Below are positions 554 to 10,807 of a stretch of 64,000 nt of DNA, piece by piece. Position 1 is the stretch's first letter, and each line of letters begins with the position of its first letter. The translations under genes and the position numbers were made by a program. The stretch spans positions 434,001 through 498,000 of the forward strand of contig CP038108.1 in the NCBI GenBank assembly GCA_004519485.1. The letters run 5' to 3'. Source of the stretch: Nannochloropsis oceanica (taxonomy: Eukaryota > Sar > Eustigmatophyceae > Eustigmatales > Monodopsidaceae). The notes beneath the pieces are model-generated. The model ran no database searches, was not told where the DNA came from, and saw only the letters and a list, made by a program, of their open reading frames with translations.

Positions 554-3500
554 CTGCTGCTGCTGCTTCTTCTTCCTCTGCTGCGGCTTGATGACGGGCA
601 TAAGAGCCTGGCCAATCCGGAGCGGCTGCTTGTCCTTCCAGGGCTGCTGCTGCTGCTCCTGCTGTCGCTGCTGCTGCTGGTAGGTCTCGATGGAAGGGGA
701 GATTTTACCCTTGCTTTGGTCGACGGACTCGGAAGAGCTCAACATCGCACCACCAACCAAACATGGCTTGCCGTTTCTCATCCCTTGTTTTCGCTGCTGC
801 TGCTGCTGCTCTTGCTGGTAATGAAGTGTCTCGCTCTTGGAGGAAATGGTGGAACTAGTTGATCCTGTTTCAAGAATATCGTATTGATGACTGTGATTAT
901 GCTGCTGCTGCTGATGATGATTATGCTGCTGCTGCTGTTGCTGCTGCTGGTCGTCGTGGTGGCGGTGTGGGAAGGAGAGGTCCTTGAGCATACGCGTCAT
1001 TGTCTTGGCTTCGCTCGCCGTGTCCCCTTCCTGCTTGGCAGTAGAGGTGACATGGTGGTGGTAGTGCTGCAGCTTACGCTGCTGTTGTTGTTGGTCTTCG
1101 TGTTGATGGTGTTGCTGCTGTTTTTCCGTCCCTCCCGCGCCAGTTACCGAGGGGGAGGAGAAGAGGGAGGAAGAGCGAGAGGACAAGGAAGAGATATCGG
1201 TATTGCTGGCAGTAATGACCACCGCTGGCGCCACAGCTATAGCAGCCTCTACTGCTCCCACCTGCTCTTTGTCCCCGCCTTCTCCCCCCCCCCCCCTCCA
1301 CCACATCCCCAACAGGCCTCCCAGCCTCTCTTCGTGCACACAATTTCACCTCCTCCTCAGCCAAAGCCAACAACTCCCTCGCCGCTTTCAGCTTAATCTC
1401 AGCTTCTTTTCTGATCAAGATCCGCATGGCCTCATCTTCCGCCATCATCGCCAAGGTTTCTTTGAGCGCAATTTTTTCACAGAATTTTTCAAATTTCTTC
1501 CGTTTTTTTTCTTCGACCCTCGCCTGTTTGAACAGGGCCTGGACAGGGGCGGAAAGAGGGGGAAGGGGATTTGAGGATGGCGGGATGGCGCTGTTTGCGG
1601 AGGTGGACGGTGCTGCTAAGGGGGGGGTGGTAATAGTGGTGGGCGCTGCAACATTAGGGAAGAGGATGTTTGTGACTAACTCGGATGTGGAGGGAAGGGG
1701 GGGAAAGGTGGTGGTGGTGGAGGAAGAAGAGACGACAGGGCAGGGAACTGATTGCTGGGAGCTGGAAGCAGGACGTGGCACAGCCAGCACCAAGGAGGAG
1801 CAAGAGGATGAGGACTGTGGTCCAGCCGCTGATGCTGACGTTACTGCAGCCGGTAATACGGACGCTCCTGTGCCTTCATTACTACTCCCACCTCCTTGCT
1901 TTTGAAACTTATTCTTATTCTTATTTTTCTTCACCTCTGTCTCCTGATGCACCTTCCTGTCCAACGTAAGTTCCGCCGCTTTCCTCTCTGCAGCCTGCAT
2001 CCATTTCTGCTCCCCATCCCTCCTTAAGGCCGCCTCCTCCGCCTCCCTCTTCCTTTCCTCCCGTCTTTCCCTCGCCTCCTCCTTTTTCTGCCACAGCGTC
2101 AAATGTCGTGCAGCAGCTGCGGCAGTTAAGTAAGCCGCCACCTGTTGCAATCGAGCCCGTCGACTCTCGAGCCCATACCTCGCCTCTCCTTCCCTCCCTT
2201 CCGCCCCAGAACACACAATAATCTCCTCCTCCTCATCCTCCTCAATCGCATCCCCGTCCAAGCAACTCTGCACCATCTCCAAGGGCGTCTCTCCTCCTCC
2301 TCCAAGCCCCCTCCCCTCCCCTCCTAACCTGCAACCTCCTCCTACCCGCACAAGCACACTCGCCCCATGACGTATCAGTAAATCCACCGTTTCCATCCCC
2401 GCGCTAACGGCCGCATAGTGCAACGGACTCAGATTCAACCCACTTAACAAATTCAAATCCAACACAAATTTCCCTTTCCTCCCTCCCTCCCTTCCTGACA
2501 TCTTCTTATGCCTCAGTAATAGCCTGAGGTAGGGAGCATCACAGGCTTCCGCCACTGCATGCATCAGCATCCTCCCCTGATCATCCTGATCCTTGCTCAA
2601 ATCAAACAAACTATATCCTGCACCCTTATCTACCTCCAATAAAAATGCTGCAATATTTAACCGTCCTCTATGTGCCTCTGGGAGCTCCTGTAACAGCATC
2701 TGCCACGCTGCTTCCTCCTGCTCCTCCCGCTGCTGCTGCTGCTGCTGCTGATCCTGCTGTTGATCCTCCTCCCCTTGGACACTATCGCTCAGTCGTCGTC
2801 GTCGTCTGCTGCCGGCGCCAGTCCTTCCCCTTCTCCACGGTGTCACACAAGCGTGCAGAAGCGTCATCCTTCTCCCATCCCTTGACCCCAAAAAGTCATG
2901 GTAATAATTCAGATTTACCTCCCAACCTCCCTCCCTCCCTCCCTCCCTCCCTCCCCCTCCACTCCTCTTTACACTTTCAACCAATGACAAAAAGTGAGCA
3001 AATTTCCCATCCACTGCGGCCTGGATGGCATCTGCAAATGTCACCAACTTTGCCTCCCCATTTTCCTCCTTCTCTTTCCTCCGCTGCTCCATCCTTGCCT
3101 TCCTTCGCGTCTCCCTCTCTTCCTCCCTCGCTCGTCTTGTTTTCTCTTCAGCCATGAGCTGCTCTCGTCGCTCTCTCCTTTCATTAGCCTCCATTGCTCG
3201 TCGGGCCCGTATTTCGTCGTCGTCTATGGCTGCTTTAGCTATTTGTTGCTGTCGTTGTTGTTGCGGCGGCGGAGGAAGCGGCGATGTGCCACCGTTGAAT
3301 CCAATGGTGGGAGCAAGGAAATAGGGCCGGCCACTGATCCAAACAATGTTCTTGCCCGTGCTGGTTGTGCAAGGTAGGGACACGGACTGTGCTAAGGAGG
3401 AGGAGGATGTTGCATCCACTGCTGGTGACGCGACTATTGCTGCTGTCGGGTGGGGAGTGGTTGCCAGAATATGCCGTTGACGGCGACGGTGCTGCGCATG

Positions 3501-4128
3501 TAGGCGGAGGAGTTCGTCTACCTCCCCATCGTCATCAAAGAAGTAGGCCTCTTCTTCATCTTCTAGACTGCCTCTCTCCTCCTCGTCGTCGTAGCCTTTG
3601 CCTTGGCCGCCGTTTCCAACGTCCACCTCGTGGTTAATATGCATCAAGACCTGTTTTAGGGTGAGGGACGGGGTGAAGAAAGGAGACGGGACAGAGAATG
3701 AGCGTTAAGTAAAGCAAGCTTCAAATGTGTACTAAGTGGCGAAGGATCGTGACTGACGTGGTGCACGCTGGGCGTAGGAAAAGGGATGTATAGACCCTGC
3801 ATCTGTGGAGACATTCATAGCACAACCTCAGGTGCGCTAAGGGCAAAGACAGAAGCCATCAGGAAAACCGGTAAACAGACCCAGGCCTTTTCTAAATTAC
3901 AAGACAGCCTTTAGTACAAAGATAGTGGCATGCAGACGGCCTTTTGTGCTTTACACGTACCTCGTATGCTTCACAGAGCTCCCACAGATTGGTGTGTCGA
4001 AGCGAGTCCCCCTCGCCCAACGCCAAGAAGGGCAGAGCCAATCGCTTGAAGGCCCTACGCATGGCCCCTTCGTCTGGGGGTGGCGAAGGCGACAGCCCGA
4101 GCAGGCTGAATGCCTCGTTGACCTTCAT
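107..4128 (-). CDS. J-like domain / ankyrin / CCCH zinc-finger protein, reading frame interrupted at a G13 tract
   Basis: Two exons are deduced: 3961-4128 and 107-3650, with an intron at 3651-3960 (donor GTACGT, acceptor AACAG). The splice joins ...CEAYE to VLMHIN, completing a J-domain-like helix IV (EAYEVL). The first ATG is at 4128 (MKVNEAFSLLGLS). Order of parts: J-like region of about 60 residues in which the HPD loop is absent (FLALGEGD instead); acidic stretch; basic coiled coil; ankyrin-like repeats (LSPLHYAAVSAGMETVDLL is the clearest); second coiled coil; S/T/P-rich linker; third basic coiled coil; Gln/His-rich region; and a final CCCH finger with C-x8-C-x5-C-x3-H spacing (CRFFGKGDGC...CLFRH). 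The frame is broken at a run of 13 G on the sense strand (1284-1296); with one G fewer it would read on to the stop at 107, giving about 1236 residues. The finger suggests RNA binding and the ankyrins protein contact; both are inference. I recognise no named orthologue. Confidence 0.7.
1284..1296 (-). repeat. 13-base homopolymer (G on the sense strand) where the gene's frame breaks
   Basis: A run of 13 C on the plus strand. Upstream of it the sense frame reads ...GDVVEGGGG. The downstream Gln/His-rich and zinc-finger part lies in another frame (GGGGEGGDKEQVGAVE). The two frames meet exactly at this tract, and I see no convincing splice pair that would remove it. It may be a base-count error, a length polymorphism, or a true interruption. 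Confidence 0.85.
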
Positions 4129-4735
4129 GGCTGTTGTAGTAGGGTGGTGGGGTCTTGGCCTTGCTGTGTCGCCGATCACTTCAAACACCTCTCTCGCTTC
4201 TGCGGGTTCGGGGCGGCCTGTACCACATGGATGAGGGAAAGGCACGTTTGAGTGTGTGTCGAAGTGTGAATAGCAGGAGGAAAAGACTGTTAATGGGGTG
4301 TCGGTCGGCTATTTGCTGTGCAGCGTGCTTTGTCGAGACGGGAAGCACAACAACGGTGCGCGCCCATCTCGCTTCAGTCAGCGAGGCATGATGACGACGA
4401 ATGTTATTTGATGAAAGGCATCTCGTTCACGCATACGTCTCCTCAAACCAGACCAACGACAACAAGAACAACCTTCCTTGAAAGACACAAAGCTAAATGC
4501 TGCCATATTGCGTGAATCTATTGACTAAATGGGAACATGTACTATTTTCTCTGAGTGTGCAACAGGACAGCGTGCACAGGAGAATTCGCATCCTCCGCAC
4601 GGCGCAGGACCTAAGCCGCTGAGAGGGGCTCTCATCCTTCCACACCCACCACCAGATATGCGGTAAAGCATTCACTCACTAATGCCCTTTCCGCACCTAA
4701 AACGTAAATAGTACAGCATTCCAAGCAAAATAATC
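4129..4735. promoter_or_regulatory. Divergent intergenic region between the J-like gene and ClpB
   Basis: Start codons of the two genes face away from each other, so this 0.6 kb must hold both promoters and 5' leaders. I found no perfect heat-shock element (alternating nGAAn units); the nearest approach, around 4467-4485, has the wrong spacing. No other ORF here is supportable. Confidence 0.5.
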
Positions 4736-7618
4736 ATGGTGCCACGCCACAGGTCCAAGCCCCCACGCCTTCCTCCGCTCTTCCTCCTCCTCCTCGTCTT
4801 CAAAATTTTCCTTGCCACCGTCACTGCCTCTGCGACGCACCAACTCAGTGGCATCTTTCAGAACGTGGACTTTACCAAGGGCTCCCTCGATGTGCTGGAG
4901 CGCGCTATTTCCACTGCCAAGTCCAAGGCCAACGCGCAAGTCTCCCCTCTTCACCTGGCAGTGTGTCTCTTTGATGAGGATGCTGAGCACAAGGGGGGAC
5001 TGGGAGGGCAATTGGTCGCAAAGGCAAACGTGCCCTTGGCCCAGCTACGTCGAAGTCTTGCCTCGGCAATCGCTAAGGATCATCCGACTCAGTCCCCTGC
5101 CCCCAGCCAGCTCTCCATTTCCAAGGACCTACAGACATTGGTCCAAACAGCGGAAAGGATGAGGAGCGACGCCGGGGATTCCTACGTCGGTGTCCACCAC
5201 CTCCTGCAGGCACTCGTGCAAGACGCCAAGGCGGGCAAGATACTGAAAGAACAAGGCCTTGCTCTCAATAAAGTTAAGGGAATAGTGGCCTCGTTGCGCA
5301 AGGGTCGCAAGACGGAGAGCCGGCAGGAGGGAGAGAGCAACTTTGAAAATTTGAACAAGTACGGACGCGACCTGGTAGCGGATGCCGAGAAAGGCAAACT
5401 TGATCCTGTCATTGGTCGCGATGGAGAAATTCGACGGGTGGTGGAAGTATTGAGCCGGCGGACCAAGAATAATCCGATTTTGCTGGGAGAGCCGGGCGTA
5501 GGCAAGACCGCCATCGTTGAGGGACTTGCTTTGCGCATCCTCAATGGGGACGTACCCAAGGCACTCGAGGATAACAAGGTCATAAGCCTTGACATGGGTA
5601 GCCTGATTGCCGGAGCGAAGTATCAAGGGGAGTTCGAAGAGCGCCTTAAGGCTGTGTTGGAAGAAGTGGCGCAGGGTGATGGAAAGGTTGTGTTATTCAT
5701 TGATGAGATCCACACGGTTGTGGGCGCGGGCGCGACTTCGGGCGCGATGGATGCAAGCAATTTACTTAAACCCATGCTGGCGCGGGGGGAGCTACGGTGC
5801 ATTGGCGCCACAACGTTGGGAGAGTACAAGAAGTACATTGAAAAGGATGCGGCGTTCGAAAGGCGCTTTCAGCCCGTGTTTGTCACCGAGCCCTCTGTTG
5901 AGGACACGATTTCCATTCTGCGAGGGTTGAGGGACCGCTACGAGAGTCATCATGGCGTTCGAATTCTGGATGCTGCTTTGGTGGAAGCCGCGCGGCTCAG
6001 CAACCGGTATGTTTCGGGGAGAAAGCTGCCGGATAAGGCCATTGATTTGATGGACGAGGCTTGCGCGAACGTGCGCGTCGACCTAGACTCCCGTCCGCAG
6101 GCACTTGATCAAGTGGAGCGGAAGTGTCTTCAACTCGAGATAGAGGCAGCAGCGCTGGCAAAGGAGGAATCAACAGACCCTGCCTCGGCAACGCGATTGG
6201 GGGAAGTCCGCCGCGAACTTGAGCAGTTGAAGGAGACTAGGACGGCACTAGAAGGAGAGTATCTGAAAGCCCAGGGACTGTTGGAGGAACTGGCGAACCT
6301 GCGCCGGGAAGTAGAGGACGTCGAATGGGCGGTCGATGAAAATAAGCGCAAGTTTCAGGTCGAAAAAGCGGCGGAGCTCCAGTACACGGAGTTGCCCAAG
6401 CTTCAGGAGCGGTACGCTGAGAAACTCGATGAGCTAAAGAAAAGCAGCAATTTGCTGCAAGATTTCGTGGGTCCGGAGCAGATTGCCTCGGTTGTGTCGC
6501 GGTGGACCGGCATTCCTGTATCGAAATTGAACCAGGGGGAGCGGGATCGGGTGTTGGGGTTGGAGGACCGCTTGAAATCGCATGTGATTGGCCAAGATGC
6601 GGCGATCAAGGCCGTGGCAAGCGCCATTTTGCGATCGCGCGCAGGCCTCTCGGCAAGCTCGCGCCCGATTGGCTCGTTCCTATTTTTAGGGCCGACAGGT
6701 GTGGGCAAGACGCACGTGGCCAAGCAGTTGGCAAAAGAATTGTTTGACGACGAGAAGGCAATGCTTCGTGTTGACATGTCGGAGTACATGGAGCAGCATA
6801 CTGTGGCGCGATTGATTGGCTCACCTCCTGGGTATATTGGGCATGATGAAGGGGGGCAATTGACGGAAGCGGTGCGTCGTCGGCCATATAGTGTGATTCT
6901 ATTCGACGAAGTTGAAAAGGCCCACAAATCTGTGCTTAATGTTTTGTTGCAGATGTTGGACGATGGGCGCTTGACCGATGGCAAGGGTCGCACCGTTGAT
7001 TTCAGCAACACGGTGATCATCATGACTTCAAATGTGGGGGCCGATGTGATTATGCGTGATGTGCGCGCACACCAAAAATTGTCCAGCAAAGGAATGAAGA
7101 TGTTGCAGGACCGGTTGCGGTCACACTTTTTGCCTGAGTTCCTGAATAGGCTGGACGAGACGGTTGTGTTCCAGCCCTTGTCACACTCGACGCTCAAACA
7201 AATTTTGGTGCATCAGTTGACTGAGGCAACGATGATGTTGCAGGCTGCCGATACGAACATTACGGTCTCTTTAGACGAGTCGGCGAATGAGTATTTGCTT
7301 CGCAAGGGTTATGATGTCGTGAATGGTGCTCGACCTTTGCGCCGGTTGATCGAGCGGATCGTGGTGACGGAGCTGAGTCGTTTGATTGTCGCGGGGCACT
7401 TGTGCTCGAATAGTAAGGTAAATGTGGAGATGGAGCACGTGCTGGGCGAAGGGGATTGTTTCAAGTACATTATACAAAGGTGGGAGGGAGGCGTAGGGAC
7501 CAAAAAGGAGGGGGAGCCAGGGGTGTTTTGGCAGATGTTGGGTGACTACATGTTGCCGCAGGACGACGGTGAGGAGGGGCCAGGGGTGGAGGGAGGAAGG
7601 TATGACGACGAGCTGTGA
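4736..7618 (+). CDS. CLPB: ClpB/Hsp104-type AAA+ disaggregase, predicted ER-lumenal
   Basis: A 960-residue protein in one exon. Residues 1-33 are a classic signal peptide: basic n-region, a Leu/Phe-rich core, then a TASA cleavage site. The Clp N domain (about 40-190) follows almost at once, leaving no room for a plastid or mitochondrial transit peptide. NBD1 has Walker A GEPGVGKT (251-258), Walker B FIDE (321-324) and pore-loop Tyr in AKYQG. The coiled-coil M domain (about 455-575) marks ClpB rather than ClpC. NBD2 has GPTGVGKT (652-659), FDE, and pore loop PPGYIG. The family is usually about 860-900 residues; here a 50-residue Gly/Asp/Glu-rich tail is added that ends in DDEL, an HDEL/KDEL-type retrieval signal (DDEL is accepted by the Kluyveromyces lactis receptor). 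Known family role: hexameric ATP-driven threading of aggregated protein with Hsp70. ER location is inferred from the two signals together. Confidence 0.95.
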
Positions 7619-8089: not shown

Positions 8090-10237
8090 CTATACCACCA
8101 CCGGTGTCAGCTTAAACAAAGCCACCCCATGGCCTGGCACCTCCCACTCCATGATTCCCTCCCTCACAGCCTCCGTCGATAAGGTCTTCCGCGCCCACAA
8201 ATCCCTCACATCATAAATCACCTTCTCCTTCTCATCCTCTCCCCCCCCTCCCTCCCTTCCCCCTTTGACTAACCCGAGATCACTCCATCTGGCAGAAATT
8301 CTATTGGCGACAGGGCTGCGATTGAAGAGGAGAACGACAACAGCATTATCGGAAAGGGGACCCATCCAGATTTCCTGGGCACCAGGAGGAGCATCGGTCT
8401 CGGGAGCTAGGCATTGCTGTTGCCAATTGTTGATAAGCAATTGCGGTAATGCGGAGGAGGAAGAAGAAGACTGAGAAAAATCTGGACTGATTTCCCCCAT
8501 ATTCTCTGTCATGAGCCCACCCGCCTGATCCCCCCATTTTCCTATATCCTTCCCTCGCTCGTTGACCACCGTTGTCGTTTTCTCCTTAATCGTCCACTGT
8601 TGCACCTCACGTGTTTCATTACATGCCACCAACTCGATCGCTATTCCTGTGTTCAAAATATTCAAAGTGCTCCTCACCACAGACAAACACAAATGGGGGG
8701 CTGTGACAGGCATGAGCATCGATCCATCCCGCAGCCACTGCTGACGCGTTGCCGCCGCCGATGAGGAGGAAACGGAAGAGGGGAAGCAAACGCAGGGCTC
8801 CAGCGCCACTCCCATGCCCGTATCGGGAAATGATACTACTTCTGCTTTTTTGGCGGTTGTGGCTTTATCTTCTTCTCCACCTGCAGAGCCTCGAAGAAGC
8901 ATGGAGCGACTGATGGCCGCCACATCCCCCTCCTCCTCCTCCTCCTCCTCCCCCATTTCCAAGCCCTGCTTCTCATCCAATCCCTGATCAGCCACAGCAA
9001 GGCATAGACTAAGATCTGCGTCTCCTCCATCTTTCGCCAACAACCGGAGAGTCACTACTTCTGCTTCCCTCGCGCGAGTGTCAAGAGCAGCAGTAGCAGT
9101 CGGCACTCCTCCTTTATCCACCTTCATCTTCACCACCTCCTCCGCCGCCGGCTCTACTGCCCAAAATACAGCATCCACATCGTCTCCCTCCCCCTCCTCC
9201 GTTCTTTCACACGGCACCATGATAGCACTTTTAACCCCCATCCCTTCCATCCCTCCTCTCCCTCCCTCTAGTGCAGAAGACCACACCCTCCGTGCCTGCC
9301 TCCCCAACGCGTCCTGGTTCACGCTTAACACCTCCTCATTTCCCAACAAATTCAGAATCTCCCCTCCTATCTCCAACCCCTTCAAGTCACATCCAATTAG
9401 CAAAGGCGCCTTCATCACACACCACAAAGACATGTGGCTCCTATATTCCTCCCCGCTCATCCCGCCATTTCCCACCTCCAGCATATCTGGATCATTCCAA
9501 CCCCCCCTCCTGCCATACCTCCATCTCCGTCCATTTACCTCCACAATCTCCATCACCGATGTCCACTCATCCCTTATATCAGGCGTCGTCCTCCAGCTGT
9601 TCCCCACTTCCCTCGCCCATCCCCCAGGGTTGTTCAACCCCCACTCACATATCGAATACAACATCGGCCGGCCCGTTCCGTTCAGGGCATCCCTCATTGG
9701 TGGGTACCGCATTTCAGGTGGCGTCCCATCTGTATAACAATTGTCGTATTTTAAATAATCTACCCCCCAATTGGCCCATGTCTGCGCGTCTAACTCCTCC
9801 ATCCCCAACGATGCTGGGTACTTCTCGCACGTCGCATACCCCGCGCTAGAATAGATCCCAAATTTAAACCCCAATCCATGCAAATACTCGCCCAAGGCCT
9901 TGAGCCCCGAGGGAAACTTGATCGGATCCTCCACCAGGCGCCCGTCGGCGGTGCGATTTCTCTCCATCCAGCAGTCATCCAAATTGACATACGAATAGCC
10001 CTTGTCCTTTAGCCCCGTGTCAATCAGGAGTTGCGCCGTCTCTTTCAGCAGAGCCTCGTCGATATTGCACCCGAATTTATTCCATGTATTGAAGCCCATG
10101 GCGGGTGTGAGCCCCATGCCATTGGACAAGGCCACGGTGGACATTGGCAGGGTTGTCAAAGTGATGGTGATGCTCAGGAGGGATAGGAGGAGGGATAGGC
10201 TATCCCGAGCGCCCGCTTCTGGCTTGACCCACCGCAT
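8090..10237 (-). CDS. GH27 alpha-galactosidase with an inserted ricin-like region
   Basis: The start is placed at the ATG at 10237 (MRWVKPEAG), which puts a hydrophobic signal peptide or anchor (SLSLLLSLLSITITLTTLP) near the N-terminus; the frame stays open further upstream without an ATG context I would prefer. The protein is about 715 residues against a usual 380-450. The GH27 (beta/alpha)8 domain is complete: GLTPAMGFNTWNKF, LDDCW, nucleophile Asp in YLKYDNCY, acid/base Asp in the first D of DIRDEW, and GGWNDPDMLEVGNGG. Between the barrel and the C-terminal beta domain (WMGPLSDNAVVVLLFNRSP ... RDLWARKTL) lies an insert with low-complexity stretches and two QxW-type motifs (QQWL, QQWTI) with LCLSVV and IELVACNE between them, as in a ricin-type beta-trefoil. 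Expected reaction: removal of terminal alpha-galactosyl residues from glycans or galactolipid-derived sugars in the secretory or vacuolar route. Confidence 0.93.
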   Translation of the reverse strand: MRWVKPEAGARDSLSLLLSLLSITITLTTLPMSTVALSNGMGLTPAMGFNTWNKFGCNIDEALLKETAQLLIDTGLKDKGYSYVNLDDCWMERNRTADGRLVEDPIKFPSGLKALGEYLHGLGFKFGIYSSAGYATCEKYPASLGMEELDAQTWANWGVDYLKYDNCYTDGTPPEMRYPPMRDALNGTGRPMLYSICEWGLNNPGGWAREVGNSWRTTPDIRDEWTSVMEIVEVNGRRWRYGRRGGWNDPDMLEVGNGGMSGEEYRSHMSLWCVMKAPLLIGCDLKGLEIGGEILNLLGNEEVLSVNQDALGRQARRVWSSALEGGRGGMEGMGVKSAIMVPCERTEEGEGDDVDAVFWAVEPAAEEVVKMKVDKGGVPTATAALDTRAREAEVVTLRLLAKDGGDADLSLCLAVADQGLDEKQGLEMGEEEEEEEGDVAAISRSMLLRGSAGGEEDKATTAKKAEVVSFPDTGMGVALEPCVCFPSSVSSSSAAATRQQWLRDGSMLMPVTAPHLCLSVVRSTLNILNTGIAIELVACNETREVQQWTIKEKTTTVVNERGKDIGKWGDQAGGLMTENMGEISPDFSQSSSSSSALPQLLINNWQQQCLAPETDAPPGAQEIWMGPLSDNAVVVLLFNRSPVANRISARWSDLGLVKGGREGGGGEDEKEKVIYDVRDLWARKTLSTEAVREGIMEWEVPGHGVALFKLTPVVV

Positions 10238-10807
10238 TACCGCTGGTCGATCCCTGTTACATGCGGATGATGCATTGAGTGTAATGAGTGATTTGCCTCC
10301 GAAAGAAGTAAATGTAGTCAAGTAATAATAGGGAGCTGGTGCTGGGGGCAGGGGGCCCGCCAGGGGCATCCCGCAGGACAAGGATTATGACGATTGATGT
10401 CATCGGCTGCTTCCTCCTTGAAAACTTTTGCTTAACGAAACCATCACTATAACGATCACACATGTGCCCCGCACAAGCCGACACAGAGCACATATTTGAT
10501 GCTCGTGCGAGAGGTGTTCAAAGAAGCCCATCTCCTTGCCCAGGGCAAGGTCAAGTGCTCGCTCACAAAAGCAAGAATTCGGCGGAGCGCGCCGGCCGAG
10601 GCAGCGTCTTCGTCTTCCACGCTTGAGACCAGCACCTTTGACACCACGCGAATGACGACCATGCTCACTCATTACCACCGCCTAACTTTTTTCTTGGTGA
10701 TGCCTGCCAGGGTGGCCAGCCTGCTTTGATTTCCTGATATTCATACACTTACCCCCTCCGCAAATACGCCCATCACACCACAGACTCTCCTCTTTCACGC
10801 TGCAGCT
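10238..10807. promoter_or_regulatory. Divergent region between alpha-galactosidase and RPN10
   Basis: Head-to-head spacer of about 0.57 kb. No motif that I can name with confidence, and no supportable ORF. Confidence 0.45.

What the first reader, a model, noticed from the sequence alone, without database searches (positions are those of the whole stretch)
4736..7618. A ClpB/Hsp100 disaggregase with both ER-entry and ER-retention signals
Seen: a strong N-terminal signal peptide ending TASA, the Clp N domain starting within about ten residues of it, intact Walker A/B and pore loops in both ATPase domains, a full M domain, and the last four residues DDEL before the stop at 7618. Known: Hsp100 disaggregases work in the cytosol, mitochondria and plastids, and the ER lumen is generally regarded as lacking one; DDEL functions as a retrieval signal in some eukaryotes. 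Inference: this alga has an ER-lumenal protein disaggregase, perhaps working with BiP, or serving the ER-continuous outer plastid membrane space found in algae with complex plastids. The acidic, Gly-rich 50-residue tail may simply display the DDEL.
Basis: partly seen in the sequence, partly recalled or inferred. Interest (0 to 1): 0.82.

Follow-up and report, generated by a model that had tools for sequence, protein, structure and literature searches.

The report
ER-resident ClpB disaggregase in an alga
A Nannochloropsis-type alga encodes a complete heat-shock protein-untangling machine that carries both an entry signal for the endoplasmic reticulum and the same stay-there tag as the alga's own main ER chaperone, in a compartment not generally thought to keep such a machine.

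Summary
Window 4736-7618 (+) is an uninterrupted 960-residue ClpB/Hsp101: signal peptide, N domain, two intact ATPase domains, full M domain, C-terminal YDDEL. Four results support the ER reading. (1) Near relatives keep both signals: 3 of 3 full-length clade members have a signal peptide; 6 of 6 with a C-terminus end in -EL (DDEL, KEEL, NEEL, GGEL, DDEL, RAEL), against 1 of 229 other ClpB-type proteins returned. (2) The genome's own BiP-type Hsp70 ends in exactly YDDEL; calreticulin, a GRP94-type Hsp90 and a PDI end SDEL, SDEL, KDEL. (3) Separate genes give a plastid-type ClpB (phenylalanine after its signal peptide), a mitochondrial-type ClpB, a Hsp101-type protein and plastid-encoded clpC. 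(4) Seven relatives form one branch (100/99) inside the Hsp101/Hsp104 clade. Against: GGEL and RAEL are weak signals, and RAEL sits on an unrelated tail; the alga's KDEL receptor has one of three changes linked to DDEL acceptance; nothing was localised or assayed. Best reading: an ER-lumenal disaggregase/unfoldase, probably working with BiP. The closest precedent is Plasmodium HSP101, a secreted ClpB with an ER pool. A new variant of a known kind.

The parts
4736..7618 (+). intron-free gene for a 960-aa ClpB/Hsp101-type protein
4736..4834 (+). predicted signal peptide, residues 1-33 (cleavage ASA|THQ by the AxA rule, recalled; SignalP was not available)
   Evidence: sequence; hydropathy 2.93 against a maximum of 2.39 in 170 other returned proteins; same architecture in P0003 and P0004
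4868..5326 (+). Clp N domain, residues 45-197
   Evidence: Pfam Clp_N 139-188; PDB N-domain chains 7tfm and 5u2l; model helices 48-188
5486..5509 (+). Walker A of ring 1, GEPGVGKT (251-258)
5615..5629 (+). pore loop 1, AKYQG (294-298); Q in place of the usual R
   Evidence: R in 48 of 51 others, Q in 3
5687..5707 (+). Walker B of ring 1 (318-324)
6179..6445 (+). M domain coiled coil, residues 482-570
   Evidence: model; M-domain search
6689..6712 (+). Walker A of ring 2, GPTGVGKT (652-659), followed by H660 where 50 of 51 others have E
6824..6841 (+). pore loop 2 with Y700
6893..6910 (+). Walker B of ring 2 (720-725)
7178..7426 (+). ClpB_D2-small domain, residues 815-897
7523..7576 (+). conserved tail motif [18 protein letters not shown] (930-947)
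   Evidence: conserved in P0002, P0003, P0004, P0121, not in P0122; strand 929-934 in the model
7604..7615 (+). C-terminal DDEL (957-960), inside YDDEL shared with this genome's BiP-type Hsp70

Best explanation
The gene encodes a ClpB/Hsp101 disaggregase that enters the ER co-translationally by a cleavable signal peptide and is kept there by retrieval through its C-terminal YDDEL. In the lumen it should form the usual ClpB hexamer and thread aggregated or misfolded polypeptides through the central pore, with ATP used by both rings. Substrate hand-over and M-domain release would be by the lumenal Hsp70, BiP. Shown from sequence: full domain and motif complement, both targeting signals, their co-conservation, use of the same tag by the genome's BiP-type Hsp70, and separate plastid-type and mitochondrial-type ClpBs. 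Inferred: ER residence, hexamer formation, disaggregation and BiP partnership.
For: Domain set and catalytic residues and ClpB/Hsp104 fold. Signal peptide in 3 of 3 full-length clade members and -EL in 6 of 6 with a C-terminus (window, P0002, P0003, P0004, P0121, P0122), against 1 of 229 other returned proteins (P0025, NNEL, no signal peptide). BiP-type Hsp70 C14 ends AYDDEL, calreticulin C12 TFSDEL, GRP94-type Hsp90 C6 PASDEL, a PDI C21 EKDEL. A KDEL-receptor homologue is present. The plastid-type ClpB C16 (VQA|FLLPF) and plastid-type Hsp90 C5 (VEG|FIPH) have F after the signal peptide, and this protein does not. One clade with 100/99 support inside the Hsp101/104 clade, while C16 groups with cyanobacteria. 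DDEL has been used as an ER-retention tag in the diatom P. tricornutum (PMC3229587, passages).
Against: P0004 ends GGEL and P0122 RAEL, which are not canonical retrieval signals; P0122's RAEL ends a long tail that does not align with the others, so its -EL may be chance. The KDEL-receptor homologue C21 keeps D50 and E117 and differs only at 54 (R); in the human receptor N54R alone did not give DDEL recognition. Four of the seven clade members (P0002, P0121, P0122, P0124) are N-terminally incomplete, so their signal peptide is unseen. No transcript, localisation, ATPase or disaggregation data. H660 after Walker A of ring 2 and Q297 in pore loop 1 are unusual and could mean altered activity.
Confidence: 0.78

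Rival explanations
1. A secretory-pathway unfoldase rather than a disaggregase: it prepares ER-transiting plastid preproteins for crossing the inner plastid membranes, or acts on cell-wall cargo, much as Plasmodium HSP101 binds export cargo in the ER.
For: Signal peptide and ER tag as above. Plasmodium HSP101 has an ER pool that binds reporter cargo (PMC8896661, passages). In ochrophytes plastid proteins pass through the ER lumen (established knowledge, recalled). The N domain with no significant relative beyond P0001-P0004 and the pore-loop change may mean special clients.
Against: No partner such as a channel was looked for. The M domain, needed for Hsp70-linked disaggregation, is complete. 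Nothing ties the protein to import.
Confidence: 0.12
2. It is secreted or held in Golgi, vacuole or periplastid space; the -EL end is a weak or incidental retrieval signal.
For: GGEL and RAEL in two relatives; human-like D50 and E117 in the alga's receptor; DDEL excluded by the human receptor (PMC8248988, abstract and passages).
Against: The genome's BiP-type Hsp70 carries the same YDDEL. -EL is kept in the five members with an alignable tail while the letters just before it vary.
Confidence: 0.13
3. The annotated N-terminus is wrong: an upstream exon supplies another targeting sequence, or the protein is cytosolic and the signal peptide is a pyrimidine-rich intron end.
For: The stretch is pyrimidine-rich, with AG at 4847 and 4860 that could be acceptors; another predictor started the protein inside, at residue 142 (P0001).
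Against: P0003 and P0004 have the same basic/hydrophobic/AxA architecture with different lengths and letters, followed by conserved QLSxVF. A separate Hsp101-type gene, C21, exists, though its N-terminal half is unseen.
Confidence: 0.06
4. Plastid stromal ClpB with a bipartite presequence.
For: It has a signal peptide, as stramenopile plastid proteins generally do (recalled).
Against: No aromatic residue at +1 and only about ten residues before the N domain, whereas C16 has the F and sits with cyanobacterial ClpB in the trees.
Confidence: 0.03

Closest known systems
Cytosolic Hsp101/Hsp104 (plants, fungi, protists)
   Same: Same fold, both ATPase rings, M domain, closest clade; 53-54% identity to four named or transcript-derived eukaryotic rows
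   Different: Those returned here have no signal peptide and no ER tag; the N domain here has no significant relative beyond P0001-P0004 among 1709 candidates
Plasmodium HSP101 (ClpB2, PTEX)
   Same: ClpB with secretory entry and an ER pool that binds cargo (PMC8896661, passages; that paper leaves open whether the pool is stable)
   Different: It works at the vacuole membrane with EXP2 and PTEX150; an xDEL retrieval tag is recalled as absent; lower similarity (576 bits, against 938 for a ClpB1 chain). Common origin not tested.
Torsins
   Same: ER-lumenal AAA+ ATPases related to Clp/HSP100 (PMC5425593, abstract and passages)
   Different: Torsins lack aromatic pore loops and need cofactors; this protein has two complete rings with pore tyrosines
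BiP as ER disaggregase (mammals)
   Same: Same proposed task in the same compartment (PMC9076838, abstract, introduction and passages)
   Different: An Hsp70 system without Hsp100; here an Hsp100 could be added to it
SKD3/CLPB of the mitochondrial intermembrane space
   Same: A ClpB relative in an unusual compartment (PMC9934407, search listing)
   Different: Ankyrin repeats at the N-terminus (listing); single ATPase ring (recalled)

Membership tests
ClpB/Hsp101 disaggregases | N domain, two AAA+ rings, ClpB_D2-small domain | tested here: met
ClpB/Hsp101 disaggregases | Walker A/B, pore tyrosines and arginine fingers in both rings | tested here: met
ClpB/Hsp101 disaggregases | Full-length M domain between the rings | tested here: met
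   helices 482-538 and 542-570
ClpB/Hsp101 disaggregases | Phylogenetic place in the Hsp101/104 clade | tested here: met
   28-row clade at 100/100, M domain plus ring 2; it also holds P0006 and P0023, which I took for bacterial, and the sister of the ER branch inside it is unresolved
ClpB/Hsp101 disaggregases | Hsp70-dependent disaggregation activity | not testable with these tools
   needs purified proteins
ER-lumenal residents retrieved by the KDEL receptor | Signal peptide without plastid or mitochondrial presequence | tested here: met
   composition and comparison only; no SignalP
ER-lumenal residents retrieved by the KDEL receptor | C-terminal signal of a type used by ER residents of the same species | tested here: met
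   BiP-type Hsp70 ends YDDEL
ER-lumenal residents retrieved by the KDEL receptor | Receptor residues that accept D at -4 | tested here: inconclusive
   C21 receptor D50, R54, E117: one of three positions changed
ER-lumenal residents retrieved by the KDEL receptor | Location in the ER lumen | not testable with these tools
   needs imaging or fractionation
Stromal ClpB with bipartite presequence | Aromatic residue at +1 after the signal peptide, then a transit peptide (rule recalled) | tested here: not met
   T at +1, N domain begins about 10 residues on; contrast C16
Plasmodium HSP101 orthologue | Common descent with apicomplexan HSP101 | not tested
   only pairwise scores seen

The most novel reading that the evidence does not exclude
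The ER lumen of Nannochloropsis and its relatives, and perhaps of a wider algal group represented by P0122/P0124, houses a dedicated, stably retrieved full-length Hsp100 disaggregase that pairs with BiP, a bichaperone system that I know from no other ER; it arose by duplication and re-targeting of a cytosolic Hsp101.
Probability: 0.58. Interest if true: 0.85.

Novelty: new variant of a known kind. Interest (0 to 1): 0.72.

Why it matters
In 2022 it was still described as unknown whether the ER can dissolve aggregates, and BiP was offered as the mammalian answer (PMC9076838, abstract, introduction and passages); torsins, ER relatives of Clp/HSP100, lack pore loops (PMC5425593, abstract and passages). 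[quoted passage not shown] It would also show that DDEL serves as a working retrieval signal in this lineage.

Tried and rejected
Plastid, mitochondrial and mis-splicing readings were considered and put low (see rivals). Viral-contig scans with P0122 (no relative) and with the window protein (31 loci, best-segment identity 30-54%) gave no close relative and were not used. A J-domain in the divergent neighbour (window about 3300-4130, minus) was suspected by eye; Pfam found nothing. The first printout of C-termini read minus-strand matches on the wrong strand; one search corrects it, and only plus-strand rows are used. The first tree had frame errors in the C28 pieces; one search was built with corrected pieces, on the M domain plus ring 2.

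Literature. Their listings were mostly capped (for example 25 of 268 papers, 20 of 427), and among the papers listed I saw no report of an ER-resident Hsp100 in an alga; the library holds only open-licence PMC papers. The main text of PMC11211512 on Nannochloropsis holds none of ClpB, Clp, chaperon, heat shock, KDEL or ER lumen. The diatom Hsp104 paper PMC12732369 (passages) reports no signal peptide in its Hsp104. PMC5447177 (passages) gave nothing on location of its ClpB.

VIA-align rows barely test residues outside 201-917, so the tail's fold was not judged from them.

These were small and I left the odds as they were.

Full report

Which organism. The genome held for this window has 29,264,788 bases in 32 contigs. 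Contig C32 is 117,556 bases and carries ClpC-like pieces in three places. Seven Nannochloropsis plastid genomes are 114,867-117,806 bp with clpC-I and clpC-II; N. oceanica IMET1 is 117,548 (PMC3750441, passages). I infer a Nannochloropsis close to N. oceanica; no record name was available.

The signal peptide is conserved. Three proteins close to the window's appeared: P0002 (93%), P0003 (82%) and P0004 (79%; identities). P0003 and P0004 reach past the N domain and start with a basic stretch, a hydrophobic core and an AxA-type site, then QLSxVF and the N domain. P0002 lacks its N-terminus. Peak hydropathy over 11 residues is 2.93 (window), 2.56 (P0003) and 3.16 (P0004), against a maximum of 2.39 among 170 other returned proteins of at least 840 aa. 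The window stretch is pyrimidine-rich and has two AGs nearby, so an intron end was considered. The different lengths and letters in the relatives, with the same layout, speak against that. The DNA of the relatives was not available.

The C-terminus is conserved. The window ends RYDDEL, P0002 EYKEEL, P0003 GYNEEL and P0004 MHGGEL. A search with residues 452-612, the M-domain region (4486 of 7246 candidates significant, best 120 listed), added P0121 (549 aa, N-terminally incomplete, 70% in that region), which ends APDDEL, and P0122 (703 aa, incomplete, 50%), which ends DGRAEL; P0124 is incomplete at its C-terminus. Of 236 proteins returned in all searches, 7 end in EL: P0001 (this gene itself), P0002, P0003, P0004, P0121, P0122 and P0025. 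Leaving out the clade (P0001-4, P0121, P0122, P0124), that is 1 of 229, and P0025 (NNEL) has no signal peptide. The lists are the best hits only, hold many near-copies and include some incomplete proteins. GGEL and RAEL are not canonical. P0122 has about 190 residues beyond the conserved part that do not align with the others, so its -EL may be chance or even an unspliced stretch.

The same genome uses this tag. I read the C-termini of ER families found by Pfam search. A BiP-type Hsp70 on C14 ends EEAYDDEL, a calreticulin on C12 TFSDEL, a GRP94-type Hsp90 on C6 PASDEL and a PDI exon on C21 EKDEL. I named these by family, look and tag; the starts of the C14 and C6 genes were not resolved. Of 30 thioredoxin-domain loci printed, only that one ends in xDEL; many are partial exons or other thioredoxin-fold proteins, one frame runs off its locus, and one C2 frame runs into a withheld stretch. 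BiP and the window protein thus share the last five residues YDDEL.

The receptor is ambiguous. The best KDEL-receptor homologue (C21) aligns to chicken KDELR2 with D at 50, R at 54 and E at 117; its exon joins are mine. The human receptor excludes DDEL. Changing D50 or N54 together with E117 switches it towards DDEL, while N54R alone does not (PMC8248988, abstract and passages). So the alga's receptor has one of three changes. K. lactis uses DDEL (same paper), and DDEL was used as an ER-retention tag in Phaeodactylum (PMC3229587, passages).

Other compartments are served by other genes. Own-genome searches find C16, a ClpB with signal peptide and VQA|FLLPF, which groups with cyanobacterial ClpB (100/98), so plastid-type. 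C28 is intron-rich with a basic, serine-rich N-terminus and no Clp_N match, so mitochondrial-type by look. C21 is intron-rich; its ring 2 falls in the Hsp101/104 clade, and its N-terminal half reads N, so its compartment is unknown. C32 carries plastid-encoded clpC. A plastid-type Hsp90 on C5 also has F after its signal peptide (VEG|FIPH). The window protein has T at +1 and about ten residues before its N domain.

Ancestry. In a careful tree of 40 sequences over the M domain and ring 2, the window protein, P0002, P0003, P0004, P0121, P0122 and P0124 form one clade (100/99) within a 28-row Hsp101/104 clade (100/100) that also holds C21 and two rows I took for bacterial, P0006 and P0023; the sister of the ER branch inside it is unresolved. 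An N-domain search returned only P0001-P0004 as significant among 1709 candidates, so the N domain is either fast-evolving or lineage-restricted. H660 right after Walker A of ring 2 is shared by window and P0002-P0004 (E in 50 of 51 others and in P0121, P0122, P0124); Q297 in pore loop 1 is R in 48 and Q in 3 of 51 others. The tail motif VFxQxL...LPQDDxEE is conserved in P0002-P0004 and P0121 (with one Q to H change in P0003).

Mechanism. The simplest account is entry by signal peptide, retrieval by YDDEL, and hexameric threading with BiP as the Hsp70 partner. Sequence shows the parts; location, assembly, activity and partnership are inferred. Plasmodium HSP101 shows that a ClpB can enter the secretory pathway, keep an ER pool and bind cargo there (PMC8896661, passages), which is why I file this as a new variant rather than a new kind. 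Mammalian ER disaggregation has been assigned to BiP (PMC9076838, abstract, introduction and passages), and torsins, the ER relatives of Clp/HSP100, lack pore loops (PMC5425593, abstract and passages).

Limits. Relatives come from unnamed records, so lineage breadth is uncertain. Intron-bearing genes may be broken in such collections, so absence elsewhere means little. SignalP, transcripts and imaging were not available. The listings of the ten paper searches named in Tried and rejected, most of them capped, showed no earlier report.

Noticed in passing
window 3300-4130, minus strand: Divergent neighbour whose first exon (MKVNEAFSLLGL...LCEAYE) looks by eye like a J-domain without its HPD motif, seemingly spliced to an acidic protein with weak ankyrin matches; Pfam finds no J-domain.
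   Followed up: partly
window 8090-10381, minus strand: Alpha-galactosidase of the Melibiase_2 type (E 6.2e-72) with a C-terminal beta-sandwich domain.
   Followed up: no
G000 C21:283136-283985 and C9:128826-129376: Two KDEL-receptor-family genes; the C21 receptor has R at position 54 but human-like D50 and E117, although the BiP-type Hsp70 ends DDEL. How it accepts DDEL is open.
   Followed up: partly
window 6713-6715 (residue 660): Histidine right after Walker A of ring 2 in window, P0002, P0003 and P0004, where 50 of 51 other ClpBs and the three more distant clade members have glutamate.
   Followed up: no
window 7523-7576: Conserved tail motif VFxQxL...LPQDDxEE of unknown role, modelled partly as a beta strand.
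   Followed up: partly
proteins P0122 and P0124: More distant clade members from unnamed metagenome-type contigs; P0122 has about 190 residues beyond the conserved part, ending RAEL.
   Followed up: partly
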